Positions 55,400 to 64,000 of a DNA stretch of 64,000 bases are shown piece by piece. The stretch is from an uncultured Phocaeicola sp. (GTDB lineage Bacteria > Bacteroidota > Bacteroidia > Bacteroidales > Bacteroidaceae). Position numbers and translations under genes: made by a program. The notes beneath the pieces were generated by a model. It saw nothing but the letters and a program-made list of their open reading frames with translations, was not told the origin of the DNA and made no database searches. Each line of letters starts with the position of its first letter. Position 1 is the stretch's first letter. The stretch spans positions 23,523-87,522 of the forward strand of contig CANPVZ010000018.1 of the NCBI GenBank assembly GCA_947581855.1, given 5' to 3'.

Positions 55400-55486
55400 G
55401 AAAAAGCCCCCGATAAAGGACGAGGGCAACCTAAGTGTTTTCACAACGGAATAATCCTTATTGTGATTTGCTTCAAATTAGTGTGG
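55400..55486 (-). ncRNA. Predicted tracrRNA of the type II-C CRISPR-Cas system
   Basis: Minus strand 5'-CACACTAATTTGAAGCAAATCACAATAAGGATTATTCCGTTGTGAAAACACTTAGGTTGCCCTCGTCCTTTATCGGGGGCTTTTTC-3'. ACTAATTTGAA(-)GCAAATCACAA matches the strand complementary to the crRNA repeat with a single 1-nt gap; then AAGGATTATTCC nexus-like hairpin, GTGAAAACAC hairpin, and GCCCTCG/CGGGGGC terminator with T-run. Confidence 0.9.
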
Positions 55487-55557: not shown

Positions 55558-58500
55558 ATGAATCATACTATGAAAAGAATTTTAGGTCTTGATTTAGGTA
55601 CAAATAGTATTGGGTGGGCTTTAGTTGATGAGGCAGAAAATAAGGAAGAGCAGTCGTCTATAATTAGATTAGGAGTACGGGTAAATCCTTTAACTGTGGA
55701 TGAGCAAAAAAATTTTGAGCAGGGTAAAAGCATCACAACAAATGCTTACAGGAGGCTTAAAAGATGTATGCGTCGTAATTTGCAACGCTATAAATTGCGT
55801 CGTAAAAATTTAATAAATTGTTTGTTGTCAAATGGTATTATACAGGAAACTACTTTTTTATGTGAGAGTGGAAATAGAACAACTTTTGAAACTTACCGGT
55901 TACGAGCAAAAGCTGTTACCGATGAAATCTCTTTGGAGGAATTCGCACGTGTGTTGTTGATGATAAATAAAAAAAGAGGTTATAAAAGCAGTCGTAAAGC
56001 AAAGTCGGCAGATGAGGGGCAATTGATAGACGGAATGACTATTGCCAAGCAACTTTATGATGAAAATATTACTCCAGGTCAATTTGTTTTGTCTCTTCTC
56101 AACGAAGGGAAAAACTACATTCCCGACTTTTACCGTTCGGATTTACAGAGTGAATTAGATAGGATATGGAAGTACCAGCGTCAGTTTTATGCTGATATAT
56201 TGACAGATGACTTTAAAGAACAATTGAAAGGGAAAGGTAAGCAGAACTCAAGTAAAATATTTTTGGGAAAATATCAAATATATACGGCCGACAATAAAGG
56301 AAAAGATAAACGATTGCAAGCTTATCGGTGGCGTGTTGAAGCGTTAAGTAAACAGTTGACAATTGAAGAAGTTGCATTTGTTATTTGTGAAATAAATGGT
56401 CTAATAAATAATTCAAGTGGTTACTTAGGCTCTATTAGTGATAGGAGTAAAGATTTGGTTTTTAATAAACAAACCGTAGGACAAGCTTTGATGAATGGAT
56501 TAATTAAAGATCCTCATTATAGTTTAAAGAATCAAGTATATTATCGTCAGGATTATATGGATGAATTTGAGGCTATTTGGGAAACACAAGCCAAATATCA
56601 TTCAGAGCTTACTCCAGAACTAAAAAAAGAAGTACGTGATATTATCATTTTTTATCAGCGACCACTTAAAAGTCAAAAGGGCTTGATTGGTTATTGTGAA
56701 CTGGAGAACAGCCAAATAGAGATAGAGGTAGATGGCAAGATGAAAATGAAAACGATAGGGAGTAGGGTTTGTCCTAAATCATCTCCTTTATTTCAAGAAT
56801 TTAAGATTTGGCAGATTCTTAATAATATTAAGGTGACAGAAAAGTCAACCGGTGCTTGCAGATATTTAGAACAGGAAGAAAAGGATATTTTGTTTTTTGA
56901 ATTGAGTGTCAAAGATAAATTGTCCAAATTAGATGTTCTTAAATATCTATTTAAAAATTATAAAGAGTTGGATTTGAACTTCAAAGAAATTGAAGGAAAT
57001 CGGACTCAGTCTTTGTTGTTCAAGGCATATCAAGATATTATAGCCATGACCGGTCATAAAGAATACGATTTCTCTAAAATGTCAGCTCATGATGTGATAA
57101 AAACCGTGACAGATATATTTACGGGCTTAGGATATCGTACAGATATGTTGAATTTCGATTCAAGTATAAAAGGACATGACTTTGATAAGCAACCAATGTA
57201 TTTGTTATGGCACTTGTTATATTCTTATGAAGGGGATAAATCGAATACGGGAATTGATAGCTTATTGGCAAAAATTGAAGAACTGACCGGCTTGGAAAGA
57301 GAATATGCAAAAAGATTGGCAAATATTACATTTCAGCCCGATTATGGGAATCTAAGCGCAAAAGCAATACGGAAGATATTGCCTTTAATAAAAAAGGGTA
57401 CAGAATTTAGCTCAGCATGTAAGAATGTCGGTTATAATCACTCCAAACGTTCCCAAACTAGAGAGGAGCTGGAAGATAAAGTTTATAAAGATCATTTAGA
57501 TATACTTCCTAGAAATAGCTTGCGGAATCCTGTTGTGGAGAAAATTCTAAATCAGATGATTAATTTAGTTAATTCGGTTATTGATACGTATGGAAAACCA
57601 GATGAAATCCGCATTGAGTTGGCACGTGAACTGAAAAAAAGTGCAAAAGAACGTGAGGAAATGATGAACTCCATTAATAAGGCAAGGGCCGAACATGAAA
57701 AATACCGTGAGATCCTTCAAAAAGAATTTGGTATAAGCAATGTAAGTCGTAATGATATAATTCGCTATAAGCTATATTTGGAATTAAAGGATAATGGTTA
57801 TAAAACACTCTATTCTAATACTTATATACCTCAAGAAAGATTGTTTAGTAAGGAATTTGATATAGAGCATATTATTCCTCAGGCAAGATTATTTAATGAT
57901 TCGTTTTCGAATAAAACACTTGAAAGTAGAAGTGTAAATATTGAAAAAAGTAATCAGACTGCTTATGATTATGTATTAAATAAGTACGGTGTAAAGGATA
58001 TTGAGGATTATAAGATTCGCATTGAAAATTTATATAAAACTAATGCAATCAGTAAAACAAAGCGTAATAATTTACTCATGAGATCAACAGATATTCCTGA
58101 TGATTTCATTAAACGAGATTTACGCACTACTCAGTACATTGCGAGAAAGGCTTGTGAAATACTTGAAGATGTTGTAAAATGTGTGCTTCCTACTACAGGA
58201 TTGATTACAGATCGTTTGCGTGAAGATTGGCAGTTGGTAGATGTGATGCAAGAATTAAATTGGGATAAGTATGATAAATTAGGTTTAACAGAAGTGCTGG
58301 AAGATAAAGATGGACGCAAGCTATACCGCATTAAAGAGTGGACCAAACGCAACGATCATCGTCACCATGCTATGGATGCATTAACAATTGCCTTTACAAA
58401 GGAGAGTTTTATACAATATTTGAATAACCTTAATGCAAAAAGTGATAAATCAAGTAGTATTTATGGAATAGAGCAGAAGGAGCTCTATCGAGATAAGCAT

Positions 58501-59691
58501 GGGAAGTTGCGATTTGTGCCTCCTATGCCACTTGATATATTTAGAATGGAAGCAAAATACCATTTGGAAAATACCTTAGTATCTATAAAAGCTAAAAATA
58601 AAGTAGTAACGCAGAATACCAACAAGATAAAGCTCAAAAATGGATTTAAGAAAAAGGTCCAGTTAACTCCTCGTGGTCAACTACATAATGAAACCATTTA
58701 TGGCAGTATGAAACGGTATGTTACCAAAGAAGAGAAAATAGGTGCAGGATTTACCGTTGAACGAATAGCTAAAGTTGCTAATCAAAAATATAGGGAAGCA
58801 TTGTTAAAGCGTCTTTTTGAATGGAATGGTGATCCTAAAAGAGCCTTTACGGGTAAAAATAGTTTGGAGAAAAATCCTATTTATTTGGATGAACTACGTA
58901 CCTGGCGGGTTCCGGTAAAAGTAAAGACGGTGGAGCAAGAGACAATTTATACGGTTCGTAAAGCTATTGGTCCTGATCTGAAAATAGATAAAATTGTAGA
59001 TGGGAGAATAAGACAAATTTTGCAAGAGCGTTTGAAAGAATTTGGGGGGGATGCTAAAAAAGCATTTGGTAATTTAGATGAGAATCCTGTCTGGTTAAAT
59101 AAAGAGAAAGGTATAGTTATTAAACGGGTAACTATCACAGGAGCAAGTAGTGTTACGCCGCTTCATGATAAAAAGGATCATCGAGGTCAATATATGTTGG
59201 AATCTACAGGAAGGAAACAGCCAGTGGATTTTGTTAACACGGGAAATAATCATCACGTGGCAATTTATCGGGACGGAAAGGGTAATTTACAAGAAAAAGT
59301 CGTTTCTTTCTATGAAGCAACAAGTCGTATAGCTCTTGGACTTCCTATAATTGATAAAGCGTATAAGAGTAGTGAAGGATGGAACTTTTTGTTTTCTATG
59401 AAGCAAAATGAATATTTTGTTTTTCCTAATGAAGAAATAGGATTTAATCCGAGTGAAATTGATTTGACGGATGCGGAAAACTACGCTCTTATTAGCCCTA
59501 ATTTATTTAGAGTGCAGAAATTAACATCAAAAGATTATGTATTTAGACATCATCTTGAAACAATCGTTGATGATAAAAAAGAATTACATGGAATAACCTG
59601 GAAGAGATTATCCTCTTTAAATAATCTAGATAAAATTGTAAAAGTTCGAGTGAATCATATCGGACAAATTGTATTTGTAGGAGAGTATTAG
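55558..59691 (+). CDS. cas9: Type II-C CRISPR-associated endonuclease Cas9 (1377 aa)
   Basis: RuvC-I MKRILGLDLGTNSIGWALVDE; RuvC-II DEIRIELARELKKSAKEREEM; HNH FDIEHIIPQARLFNDSFSNKTLESRSVNIEKSN; RuvC-III NDHRHHAMDALTIAF. Alternative start 55570. Confidence 0.98.
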   Translation: MNHTMKRILGLDLGTNSIGWALVDEAENKEEQSSIIRLGVRVNPLTVDEQKNFEQGKSITTNAYRRLKRCMRRNLQRYKLRRKNLINCLLSNGIIQETTFLCESGNRTTFETYRLRAKAVTDEISLEEFARVLLMINKKRGYKSSRKAKSADEGQLIDGMTIAKQLYDENITPGQFVLSLLNEGKNYIPDFYRSDLQSELDRIWKYQRQFYADILTDDFKEQLKGKGKQNSSKIFLGKYQIYTADNKGKDKRLQAYRWRVEALSKQLTIEEVAFVICEINGLINNSSGYLGSISDRSKDLVFNKQTVGQALMNGLIKDPHYSLKNQVYYRQDYMDEFEAIWETQAKYHSELTPELKKEVRDIIIFYQRPLKSQKGLIGYCELENSQIEIEVDGKMKMKTIGSRVCPKSSPLFQEFKIWQILNNIKVTEKSTGACRYLEQEEKDILFFELSVKDKLSKLDVLKYLFKNYKELDLNFKEIEGNRTQSLLFKAYQDIIAMTGHKEYDFSKMSAHDVIKTVTDIFTGLGYRTDMLNFDSSIKGHDFDKQPMYLLWHLLYSYEGDKSNTGIDSLLAKIEELTGLEREYAKRLANITFQPDYGNLSAKAIRKILPLIKKGTEFSSACKNVGYNHSKRSQTREELEDKVYKDHLDILPRNSLRNPVVEKILNQMINLVNSVIDTYGKPDEIRIELARELKKSAKEREEMMNSINKARAEHEKYREILQKEFGISNVSRNDIIRYKLYLELKDNGYKTLYSNTYIPQERLFSKEFDIEHIIPQARLFNDSFSNKTLESRSVNIEKSNQTAYDYVLNKYGVKDIEDYKIRIENLYKTNAISKTKRNNLLMRSTDIPDDFIKRDLRTTQYIARKACEILEDVVKCVLPTTGLITDRLREDWQLVDVMQELNWDKYDKLGLTEVLEDKDGRKLYRIKEWTKRNDHRHHAMDALTIAFTKESFIQYLNNLNAKSDKSSSIYGIEQKELYRDKHGKLRFVPPMPLDIFRMEAKYHLENTLVSIKAKNKVVTQNTNKIKLKNGFKKKVQLTPRGQLHNETIYGSMKRYVTKEEKIGAGFTVERIAKVANQKYREALLKRLFEWNGDPKRAFTGKNSLEKNPIYLDELRTWRVPVKVKTVEQETIYTVRKAIGPDLKIDKIVDGRIRQILQERLKEFGGDAKKAFGNLDENPVWLNKEKGIVIKRVTITGASSVTPLHDKKDHRGQYMLESTGRKQPVDFVNTGNNHHVAIYRDGKGNLQEKVVSFYEATSRIALGLPIIDKAYKSSEGWNFLFSMKQNEYFVFPNEEIGFNPSEIDLTDAENYALISPNLFRVQKLTSKDYVFRHHLETIVDDKKELHGITWKRLSSLNNLDKIVKVRVNHIGQIVFVGEY

Positions 59692-59787: not shown

Positions 59788-61052
<1,265 letters not shown>

Positions 61053-61056
61053 AAAT

Positions 61057-61086
61057 AATAAATCCCGTTTGAATGCGGGATTTATT
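61057..61086. terminator. 11-bp perfect hairpin between cas2 and the CRISPR array
   Basis: aataaatcccg (61057-61067) / cgggatttatt (61076-61086); no strong T-run on either side. Confidence 0.55.
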
Positions 61087-61161
61087 GGTGGAAACAGTTC
61101 TCATTTTTCTATTCTAGCATTTAATGTATACCATTGAAAATCAGTGTAAAATGTAAAATCC

Positions 61162-64000
61162 GCTGTTCCCAATGGTTCAAAGATACTAATTTGAAAGCAA
61201 ATCACAACTTCCTACTTGCTCCATATTCCCGGTGACGGGCTGTTCCCAATGGTTCAAAGATACTAATTTGAAAGCAAATCACAACTAGGGGGAGAGTCAC
61301 CCCCTAAGCGGGGAGGCTGTTCCCAATGGTTCAAAGATACTAATTTGAAAGCAAATCACAACTGTTCCTGCTAATATATCATTTACCGTTGGCTGTTCCC
61401 AATGGTTCAAAGATACTAATTTGAAAGCAAATCACAACTAAGATGCCATGATCTAATGGCGATTCCTGGCTGTTCCCAATGGTTCAAAGATACTAATTTG
61501 AAAGCAAATCACAACTTAATATGTTGGTTGTATCGCTTCGCTCACGCTGTTCCCAATGGTTCAAAGATACTAATTTGAAAGCAAATCACAACTCGGAGTG
61601 TGGAGTTACCTTTGCAGACTGAGCTGTTCCCAATGGTTCAAAGATACTAATTTGAAAGCAAATCACAACTTTTGATAATCTCTTTGCACATTTTTTCTAG
61701 CTGTTCCCAATGGTTCAAAGATACTAATTTGAAAGCAAATCACAACATCCACTTTGAAGTGAATATTACCTCCTTTGCTGTTCCCAATGGTTCAAAGATA
61801 CTAATTTGAAAGCAAATCACAACTTACGAAGGCGTTACCATGGAAGAAATCTAGCTGTTCCCAATGGTTCAAAGATACTAATTTGAAAGCAAATCACAAC
61901 CGTAGAACCCGAGGTATATAAGTATCCATCGCTGTTCCCAATGGTTCAAAGATACTAATTTGAAAGCAAATCACAACGTGAAGCTCGTCCATGTTATCAA
62001 AGTCTAGGCTGTTCCCAATGGTTCAAAGATACTAATTTGAAAGCAAATCACAACCTGCGGACTTCTGAATACAAAGCTTAAATGCTGTTCCCAATGGTTC
62101 AAAGATACTAATTTGAAAGCAAATCACAACTCGCCCTGCGAGGCGTTAATAACCGTATAGCTGTTCCCAATGGTTCAAAGATACTAATTTGAAAGCAAAT
62201 CACAACGAATACTTCACCTGTTTTTTTAGAACAATAGCTGTTCCCAATGGTTCAAAGATACTAATTTGAAAGCAAATCACAACCTAAGGTATTTTTACCT
62301 ATACTTCTAGTTAGCTGTTCCCAATGGTTCAAAGATACTAATTTGAAAGCAAATCACAACGTTAAAGTTGGTCATATAGTGGATCCAAGCGCTGTTCCCA
62401 ATGGTTCAAAGATACTAATTTGAAAGCAAATCACAACAGAGCATTTTCTCTTTCGATTTGAGCATCTGCTGTTCCCAATGGTTCAAAGATACTAATTTGA
62501 AAGCAAATCACAACATATATTCCTACTTCTAATTCTGCTATTTGCTGTTCCCAATGGTTCAAAGATACTAATTTGAAAGCAAATCACAACTACGGTCGGA
62601 TGCGTCATTGTTTGTTTTCGCTGTTCCCAATGGTTCAAAGATACTAATTTGAAAGCAAATCACAACTAATAACATGATCACCCATTTTTTCATTAAGCTG
62701 TTCCCAATGGTTCAAAGATACTAATTTGAAAGCAAATCACAACCATTGCAATCTCATTTGCCATTACTTTGCGCTGTTCCCAATGGTTCAAAGATACTAA
62801 TTTGAAAGCAAATCACAACGAATACGAGGTAGTCTTTACTAAATAATAGGCTGTTCCCAATGGTTCAAAGATACTAATTTGAAAGCAAATCACAACTCCG
62901 GACTTGTGTTGAGGTATTTTCGCCATGCTGTTCCCAATGGTTCAAAGATACTAATTTGAAAGCAAATCACAACCAGATGCAATCTGGGGAGGACACGACC
63001 AAGCTGTTCCCAATGGTTCAAAGATACTAATTTGAAAGCAAATCACAACCCCACCGATCTGTACGTATATTATACGCTGGCTGTTCCCAATGGTTCAAAG
63101 ATACTAATTTGAAAGCAAATCACAACATAACCGTATATCTCTTCCTACGCAACTATGCTGTTCCCAATGGTTCAAAGATACTAATTTGAAAGCAAATCAC
63201 AACCATTCAGTTGAGTTTGGCTATCAGCTAGTTGCTGTTCCCAATGGTTCAAAGATACTAATTTGAAAGCAAATCACAACTCATAGTTGGTGTAGTCCCA
63301 CATTTGTTTTGCTGTTCCCAATGGTTCAAAGATACTAATTTGAAAGCAAATCACAACTCGTAATTAGTATAGTCCCACAGTTCTTTTGCTGTTCCCAATG
63401 GTTCAAAGATACTAATTTGAAAGCAAATCACAACTGCATTTCCTAAGGTTCCGAAGGCCATTACGCTGTTCCCAATGGTTCAAAGATACTAATTTGAAAG
63501 CAAATCACAACCATCGCAATTTCGTTTGCCATTACTCTGCGCTGTTCCCAATGGTTCAAAGATACTAATTTGAAAGCAAATCACAACCAAGTGCACTATG
63601 GGGAGGTCACGACCAAAGCTGTTCCCAATGGTTCAAAGATACTAATTTGAAAGCAAATCACAACATGACCGTATATCTCTTCCTACGCAACTAGCTGTTC
63701 CCAATGGTTCAAAGATACTAATTTGAAAGCAAATCACAACTAAAGTCGCGGCGTGTCCGTTTCTCCGGACGCTGTTCCCAATGGTTCAAAGATACTAATT
63801 TGAAAGCAAATCACAACTTGTTTGTTTGCGTAATAATTTTTGAAAAGCTGTTCCCAATGGTTCAAAGATACTAATTTGAAAGCAAATCACAACTACTGTC
63901 GGATGTGTCATTGTTTGTTTTCTGCTGTTCCCAATGGTTCAAAGATACTAATTTGAAAGCAAATCACAACTTGTTTGTTTGCGTAATAATTTTTGAAAAG
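61162..64000 (-). CRISPR. Type II-C CRISPR array: 37 complete 47-nt repeats with 29-30-nt spacers, continuing past the window
   Basis: Repeat on + strand: gctgttcccaatggttcaaagatactaatttgaaagcaaatcacaac (all copies read identical). First repeat 61162-61208, last complete 63924-63970; base 64000 is apparently the first base of the next repeat. crRNA orientation inferred as minus (GTTGTGATTTGC... immediately 3' of spacer) from tracrRNA complementarity. Confidence 0.99.

What the first reader, a model, noticed from the sequence alone, without database searches (positions are those of the whole stretch)
62591..63923. Five pairs of homologous but non-identical spacers with identical left boundaries
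Seen: S21 62744 cattgcaatctcatttgccattactttgc / S31 63512 catcgcaatttcgtttgccattactctgc; S28 63281 tcatagttggtgtagtcccacatttgtttt / S29 63358 tcgtaattagtatagtcccacagttctttt; S24 62974 cagatgcaatctggggaggacacgaccaa / S32 63588 caagtgcactatggggaggtcacgaccaaa; S26 63127 ataaccgtatatctcttcctacgcaactat / S33 63665 atgaccgtatatctcttcctacgcaacta; S19 62591 tacggtcggatgcgtcattgtttgttttc / S36 63894 tactgtcggatgtgtcattgtttgttttct. Repeats stay identical, so array drift is unlikely. Three pairs (21/31, 24/32, 26/33) are in the same order in both blocks. Inference: the system repeatedly sampled the same positions in related phages or mobile elements, implying strong acquisition hotspots or selection for the same targets.
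Basis: partly seen in the sequence, partly recalled or inferred. Interest (0 to 1): 0.75.

Follow-up and report, generated by a model that had tools for sequence, protein, structure and literature searches.

The report
CRISPR memory re-recorded same phage sites
A gut bacterium's ordinary Cas9-type CRISPR memory stores five phage sites twice, each time in a slightly different version; at least two of the sites lie in tiny single-stranded-DNA phages, and across 113 related arrays the two versions tend to differ next to the point where Cas9 is expected to cut, as if the memory were updated after the phage changed there.

Summary
Five in-register, non-identical spacer pairs lie among 36 spacers of a type II-C array with 37 identical repeats, beside cas9-cas1-cas2 in a Bacteroidales assembly. 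No off-register or reverse-strand pairs occur within the array at 18 nt or more of overlap. The S36 end is an unresolved assembly boundary: the last 77 nt duplicate repeat+S35.

Pairs 28/29 and 19/36 hit single orthologous sites in Microviridae (DNA pilot protein, major capsid protein). About ten other spacers hit the same phage group, in coding-sense orientation. No target was found for 21/31, 24/32 and 26/33. A strong hotspot is not required, because the targets are ~6-kb genomes with few eligible sites. The shared order of three pairs is a 1-in-6 coincidence.

One result goes beyond the finding. In 113 related arrays, in-register homologous pairs occur within arrays but never between arrays (0 of ~1.9 million comparisons). 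Their mismatches concentrate at PAM-proximal nucleotides 3-4: 17 of 79 against 5.3 expected; without the window p is about 0.0006-0.004. This fits re-acquisition of a site after the phage changed where Cas9 is expected to cut. That mechanism is inferred, not shown.

The parts
55558..59691 (+). cas9 (1377 aa), type II
   Evidence: NCBIfam TIGR01865 Cas9 518 bits; Pfam RuvC_III and HNH_4
59788..60720 (+). cas1 (type II)
   Evidence: NCBIfam TIGR03639 type II Cas1 328 bits
60720..61052 (+). cas2; no csn2 or cas4 ORF follows before the array, hence subtype II-C
   Evidence: NCBIfam TIGR01573; ORF list
61053..61161 (.). leader-side flank, acquisition end (S1 newest)
   Evidence: inferred: in relatives the degenerate terminal repeat is at the cas-distal end; agrees with PMC12080349 and PMC8092290
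61162..64000 (-). CRISPR array, 37 identical 47-bp repeats, 36 complete spacers of 29-30 bp; crRNA sense is the minus strand
   Evidence: orientation inferred from the type II rule spacer-GTTG... and from PMC8092290
62591..62619 (-). S19, pair with S36; microvirus major capsid protein, motif KQTMTHPTV
63894..63923 (-). S36, pair with S19; 4 mismatches to microvirus mar60 MCP
63281..63310 (-). S28, pair with S29; microvirus DNA pilot protein, motif WDYTNY
63358..63387 (-). S29, pair with S28; same site in microvirus mar45
62744..62772 (-). S21, pair with S31; target not found
63512..63540 (-). S31, pair with S21; target not found
62974..63002 (-). S24, pair with S32; target not found
63588..63617 (-). 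S32, pair with S24; target not found
63127..63156 (-). S26, pair with S33; one mismatch, at position 3; overlaps S13 by 11 nt
63665..63693 (-). S33, pair with S26; target not found
62131..62159 (-). S13, suffix ATAACCGTATA equals the prefix of S26
63818..63846 (-). S35; microvirus major capsid protein (28 of 29 to two GenBank genomes)
63924..64000 (.). last 77 nt of the contig, exact duplicate of 63771-63847: assembly boundary
61593..61622 (-). S6, exact match in small Bacteroides plasmids

Best explanation
This is an active type II-C CRISPR array whose host has been infected repeatedly by slowly diverging lineages of the same small phage group, mainly Bacteroidales Microviridae. Each pair is two independent acquisitions from the same PAM-defined site in two phage variants. 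Because the PAM fixes the spacer's PAM-proximal end, both spacers start at the same base, while the far end varies by one base. Coincidence is frequent because a 6-kb target has few eligible sites. A second acquisition at a used site is favoured when the old spacer no longer works, and the most damaging mismatch is next to the PAM; this would explain the excess of differences at nucleotides 3-4. Shown: the pairs, their register, microvirus targets for two pairs, and the nucleotide 3-4 excess across arrays. Inferred: the order of acquisition, the PAM and cut position of this Cas9, and escape as the cause.
For: Pairs are far above chance and all at offset 0. BLAST of all 36 spacers at E up to 10 returns 13 phage records, all Microviridae; the four spacers of pairs 19/36 and 28/29 return 14 records, all Microviridae. 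In 36 microvirus genomes the real spacers give 43 matches at 5 mismatches or fewer, against 0 in three shuffles. S28 and S29 both sit at one VP2 site, S19 and S36 both at one MCP site. Read in the gene frame, the two differences of 19/36 are synonymous (KQTMTHPTV) and four of six in 28/29 are synonymous (WDYTNY), so the variation arose in phage genes, not in the array. Independent integration: length differs in three pairs and the neighbours are unrelated. General: 113 arrays, 2256 spacers, 32 in-register intra-array pairs in 19 arrays against 8 off-register or opposite-strand ones; inter-array comparison of 1960 spacers gives 0 in register. Mismatches at nucleotides 3-4: 17 of 79 in 21 pairs, expected 5.3 (uniform) or 6.4 (codon phase kept), p at the permutation floor 0.00012; without the window 11 of 61, p 0.0006 and 0.002; in arrays fetched after the hypothesis was written down 3 of 11 in 4 pairs, p 0.02 and 0.04. 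All three single-mismatch pairs kept in the test differ at position 3 or 4. Base composition at positions 1-5 does not explain it.
Against: Three of the five pairs have no identified target. No exact protospacer was found for any pair member, so the PAM of this system is not established and 'same PAM' rests on shared boundary and conserved flanks in diverged relatives. The nucleotide 3-4 statistic was chosen after seeing the window and the first set of pairs; only the four later pairs are strictly independent. A general seed model would also predict excess at positions 1, 2 and 5, where 2, 0 and 0 mismatches are seen. Pairs in arrays L233 and L201 were left out as probable sequencing or duplication noise, a judgement made by eye; L201's pair differs only at position 1, and one of L233's differs only at position 3.
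Confidence: 0.68

Rival explanations
1. Limited-site null: spacers are drawn at random from the few eligible sites of ~6-kb, A-rich microvirus genomes, so repeats of a site are ordinary coincidence and no hotspot, priming or escape is involved.
For: Many spacers target one phage group; birthday and Chao1 estimates give an effective pool of about 27-126 sites, of the order of what a few-base PAM on one strand of a 6-kb genome would allow; coding strand about 42% A versus 19% T in most genomes; S13 overlaps S26.
Against: It does not predict the excess of differences at nucleotides 3-4, nor similar pairs in many other arrays whose targets are unknown.
Confidence: 0.45
2. Same-site priming: Cas9 carrying the old, mismatched crRNA binds or cuts the changed protospacer and delivers that very site to Cas1-Cas2.
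For: Exact in-register re-use; F. columnare II-C shows acquisition peaks around a pre-existing spacer (PMC8092290); S. mutans II-A shows priming (PMC8265633).
Against: Published priming in type II enriches neighbouring sites, not the same site; off-register neighbours are nearly absent here (8 against 32 in register).
Confidence: 0.15
3. Two sister lineages sampled the same phages independently, and their arrays were then joined by recombination between the 47-bp repeats.
For: All older members lie in S29-S36 and all newer members in S19-S28, and three pairs are collinear.
Against: That partition has probability 120/945 = 0.13 for random pairs, so it is weak; it predicts no nucleotide 3-4 excess.
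Confidence: 0.12
4. Block duplication inside the array followed by mutation of the spacer copies.
For: Exact block duplications do occur in other arrays of this group, e.g. a 10-spacer block in L116.
Against: Repeats are all identical, only scattered spacers are paired, lengths differ, and the changes are mostly synonymous in phage reading frames where the frame is known.
Confidence: 0.03
5. Assembly mixture: the variants are alleles of one spacer from co-assembled strains.
For: The contig ends at a k=77 junction with S35 repeated; the genome is 39 contigs at 88% completeness.
Against: Four pairs lie inside the contig at different positions with unique neighbours; a 77-mer spans a repeat plus 15 nt on each side, so adjacency is resolved. 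Only S36 is exposed to this risk.
Confidence: 0.05

Closest known systems
Type II-C CRISPR-Cas of Bacteroides fragilis (PMC9367070)
   Same: 47-bp repeat differing by one base (GCTGTTTCC... versus GCTGTTCCC...), Cas9 system with diverse arrays, and targets that include a Microviridae phage
   Different: That paper's text, as searched here, does not mention same-site spacer pairs; the PAM it reports (C at downstream position 6) is not evident in the flanks found here
Flavobacterium columnare type II-C (PMC8092290)
   Same: PAM-proximal spacer end faces the leader, transcription towards the variable end, few mRNA-targeting II-C spacers, limited protospacer pool
   Different: dsDNA phage, PAM NNNNNTAAA; repeated identical spacers and priming-like peaks rather than variant pairs
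Phage escape from Cas9 by PAM and seed mutation (PMC10132644 and work cited there)
   Same: PAM-proximal changes; a proposed influence of the cut site on where mutations arise
   Different: Laboratory phage lambda; here the trace is seen in natural arrays as differences between re-acquired spacers
CRISPR-targeted Microviridae of the human gut (PMC8530359)
   Same: Microviridae are frequent CRISPR targets, Bacteroidetes among the predicted hosts
   Different: A survey of targets, not of repeated sampling of one site within an array

Membership tests
Type II-C CRISPR-Cas | Cas9 with RuvC and HNH domains | tested here: met
   TIGR01865, PF18541, PF13395
Type II-C CRISPR-Cas | cas1 and cas2 present, no csn2 and no cas4 in the locus | tested here: met
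   cas1 and cas2; no further ORF of 90 aa or more between cas2 and the array
Type II-C CRISPR-Cas | tracrRNA with anti-repeat | tested here: inconclusive
   no exact 14-mer of the repeat outside the array; best 24-nt half-repeat match is 16 of 24, one of them at 55460 upstream of cas9
Type II-C CRISPR-Cas | acquisition at the cas-side end, degenerate repeat at the far end | tested here: inconclusive
   degenerate repeats are cas-distal in nearly all related arrays that have one; not visible in the window itself because the contig ends inside the array
Type II-C CRISPR-Cas | PAM 3' of the protospacer in guide sense | tested here: inconclusive
   flanks of 11-12 sites in diverged relatives show no clear consensus
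Spacer pairs against Microviridae | both pair members match one orthologous site in microvirus genomes | tested here: met
   met for 19/36 and 28/29
Spacer pairs against Microviridae | the same for the other three pairs | tested here: inconclusive
   targets of 21/31, 24/32 and 26/33 not found
Primed adaptation | new spacers enriched around, not only at, the old protospacer | tested here: inconclusive
   only the S13/S26 overlap found in this array; no complete target genome available

The most novel reading that the evidence does not exclude
Natural type II-C arrays record mutation at the Cas9 cut: when Cas9 cuts a phage between nucleotides 3 and 4 from the PAM, imperfect repair leaves a change at exactly those positions, the phage escapes, and the host then re-acquires the same site in its changed form. 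The specific excess at 3-4, with almost none at 1, 2 and 5, would distinguish this from plain seed-mutation escape.
Probability: 0.2. Interest if true: 0.75.

Novelty: new member of a known kind. Interest (0 to 1): 0.5.

Why it matters
If same-array spacer pairs are a record of phage escape followed by re-immunisation, any assembled genome can be mined for natural escape positions without infecting anything. The nucleotide 3-4 excess makes a concrete, testable claim about where phages change under natural Cas9 pressure, and the data show that tiny ssDNA phages are a repeatedly updated target of this Bacteroidales type II-C array.

Tried and rejected
IMG/VR pattern scans for pairs 26/33, 21/31 and 28/29, and shorter cores of 26/33 and 24/32, gave no hits. 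A protein-degenerate pattern for 21/31 gave 8 loci with 7-10 mismatches; the one examined (L252) has the match at the start of a long ORF in a contig with no sign of a microvirus, so it was set aside as chance. BLAST of 21/31, 24/32 and S26 against phages gave nothing. Spacer search in 15 genomes of the same genus found only the array itself. Local gapped alignment of S13+S26, S24, S21 and S31 to 36 microviruses was not above shuffles, and S32 only marginally. PAM inference from flanks was inconclusive. The shared order of three pairs was rejected as evidence (1/6). The wider seed window (first mismatch within positions 1-8) is only weakly enriched (p 0.016 over all pairs; p about 0.1 without the window).

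Full report
Locus. The window lies in contig C18 of a 39-contig, 88%-complete genome and ends where that contig ends. It holds cas9 (55558-59691), cas1 (59788-60720) and cas2 (60720-61052), confirmed by NCBIfam and Pfam, with no csn2 or cas4 before the array, hence subtype II-C. The array starts at 61162 and has 37 identical 47-bp repeats and 36 complete spacers of 29-30 bp. The repeat differs by one base from that of the B. fragilis II-C system (PMC9367070). The host is in the order Bacteroidales; family Bacteroidaceae is likely, because a genome of the same family (G404) has a Cas9 contig of the same length (179312) as the Xylanibacter muris record.

Observation. The five pairs are exactly as described. 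They are the only related spacers found at 18 nt or more of overlap, all at offset 0 and in the same orientation, with scores of 15 to 26.5 against at most 8 in 30 shuffled arrays. The end of the window needs care. Its last 77 nt are an exact copy of repeat+S35 at 63771, as expected where a k=77 assembly graph is cut, so S36 and the second S35 cannot be ordered safely. Four pairs do not depend on this. S13 overlaps S26 by 11 nt, so that region was sampled a third time.

Orientation. In type II systems the guide is followed by the repeat's GTTG end; the reverse complement of this repeat starts GTTGTGATTTGC, so guides are read from the minus strand and the left end of each listed spacer is its PAM-proximal end. 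This is inferred, and agrees with F. columnare, where the PAM end faces the leader (PMC8092290). In nearly all related arrays that have a degenerate terminal repeat it lies at the cas-distal end, and II-C arrays acquire at the other end (PMC12080349). S1 is therefore taken as newest and S36 as oldest.

Targets. Of phage records matching any spacer at E up to 10, all 13 are Microviridae; for pairs 19/36 and 28/29 alone, 14 of 14 are. Scanning 36 microvirus genomes, the real spacers give 43 matches with at most 5 mismatches and three shuffled sets give none. S28 and S29 lie on one site of the DNA pilot protein (WDYTNY), 4 mismatches each to mar45; S19 and S36 lie on one site of the major capsid protein (KQTMTHPTV), S36 with 4 and S19 with 6 mismatches to mar60. 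S8, S12, S15, S16, S25, S27, S34 and S35 also match microviruses, S35 with one mismatch and several of the others only at 6-8 mismatches, and S11 and S14 weakly at the peptide level. Where the gene orientation is known, these guides read as the coding strand, so they could not pair with phage mRNA or with a virion strand of coding sense. That strand is about 42% A and 19% T in most of these genomes, so an A-containing PAM would produce the bias; in F. columnare a similar bias was not explained by PAM frequency (PMC8092290). S6 matches small Bacteroides plasmids exactly. Targets for 21/31, 24/32 and 26/33 were not found.

Why the same sites. In the gene frames of 19/36 and 28/29, six of eight differences are synonymous. 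Changes made inside an array would not respect a phage reading frame, so the variants existed in the phages. With about 6-kb targets, five repeats among 22 to 36 draws imply an effective pool of roughly 28 to 126 sites, which a few-base PAM on one strand could give. A strong hotspot is therefore possible but not required. The collinearity of three pairs (1 in 6) and the split into S19-S28 and S29-S36 (0.13) are weak.

Other arrays. From cas9 relatives I extracted 113 non-redundant arrays with 2256 spacers. Within arrays, 32 in-register homologous pairs occur in 19 arrays, against 8 off-register or opposite-strand ones. Between arrays, 1960 spacers compared all against all give none in register; nine reverse-strand hits at scattered offsets look like chance. 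The window has the highest rate: 5 of 630 pairs against 16 counted pairs in about 34,000 (odds ratio 17).

Where pair members differ. After removing duplicates and two arrays judged noisy by eye (L233, L201), 21 pairs carry 79 mismatches. Seventeen are at PAM-proximal nucleotides 3-4, against 5.3 expected under uniform placement and 6.4 when codon phase is kept; positions 1, 2 and 5 have 2, 0 and 0. Without the window it is 11 of 61 (p 0.0006 uniform, 0.002 phase). The idea came from the window and the first set of arrays seen together. It was written down in the notebook before the last arrays were fetched; those four pairs alone give 3 of 11 (p 0.02 and 0.04). The broader statistic 'any mismatch in 1-4' is weaker (p 0.05 and 0.12 without the window). 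Composition at positions 1-5 is not skewed enough to explain this.

Reading. Most likely the host was infected again by a drifted relative of a phage it already remembered, the old spacer failed because of a change next to the PAM, and the same PAM-defined site was captured again. Cas9 enzymes generally cut between nucleotides 3 and 4 (general knowledge), and repair near the cut has been proposed to shape escape mutations (PMC10132644), so the narrow peak at 3-4 could mark the cut itself. That is a hypothesis: the cut position of this Cas9, its PAM and the failure of mismatched guides were not tested.

Verdict. The locus is an ordinary II-C system. The pairs are real, two have identified microvirus targets, and the 3-4 pattern is a modest, partly post hoc, but partly replicated statistical result worth a larger fixed-in-advance test.

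Noticed in passing
63771-63847 and 63924-64000: Exact 77-nt duplication (repeat+S35) at the contig end: an assembly-graph boundary, so S36/S37 order is unsafe.
   Followed up: partly
62131-62159 and 63127-63156: S13 ends with the 11 nt that begin S26, so the two protospacers overlap; target unknown.
   Followed up: partly
61593-61622: S6 matches small Bacteroides plasmids exactly (four records at 100%).
   Followed up: partly
61162-64000: Microvirus-matching spacers read as the phage coding strand wherever orientation is known, a strong strand bias that base composition plus an A-containing PAM may explain.
   Followed up: partly
61162-61208 (each repeat): Read as the guide strand, the repeat contains TATCTTTG, resembling the Bacteroides -7 promoter element (TAnnTTTG, from general knowledge); a possible internal promoter.
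   Followed up: no
L233:9299: An array with seven near-identical in-register spacer pairs, mostly single-base differences between close neighbours; judged sequencing error or decayed duplication and left out of the tests.
   Followed up: no
L116:15837: A ten-spacer block duplicated exactly within one II-C array.
   Followed up: no
55558-59691: The Cas9 is closer to one of Coprobacter secundus (71%) than to that of a same-family genome (65%), suggesting horizontal movement of the locus.
   Followed up: no
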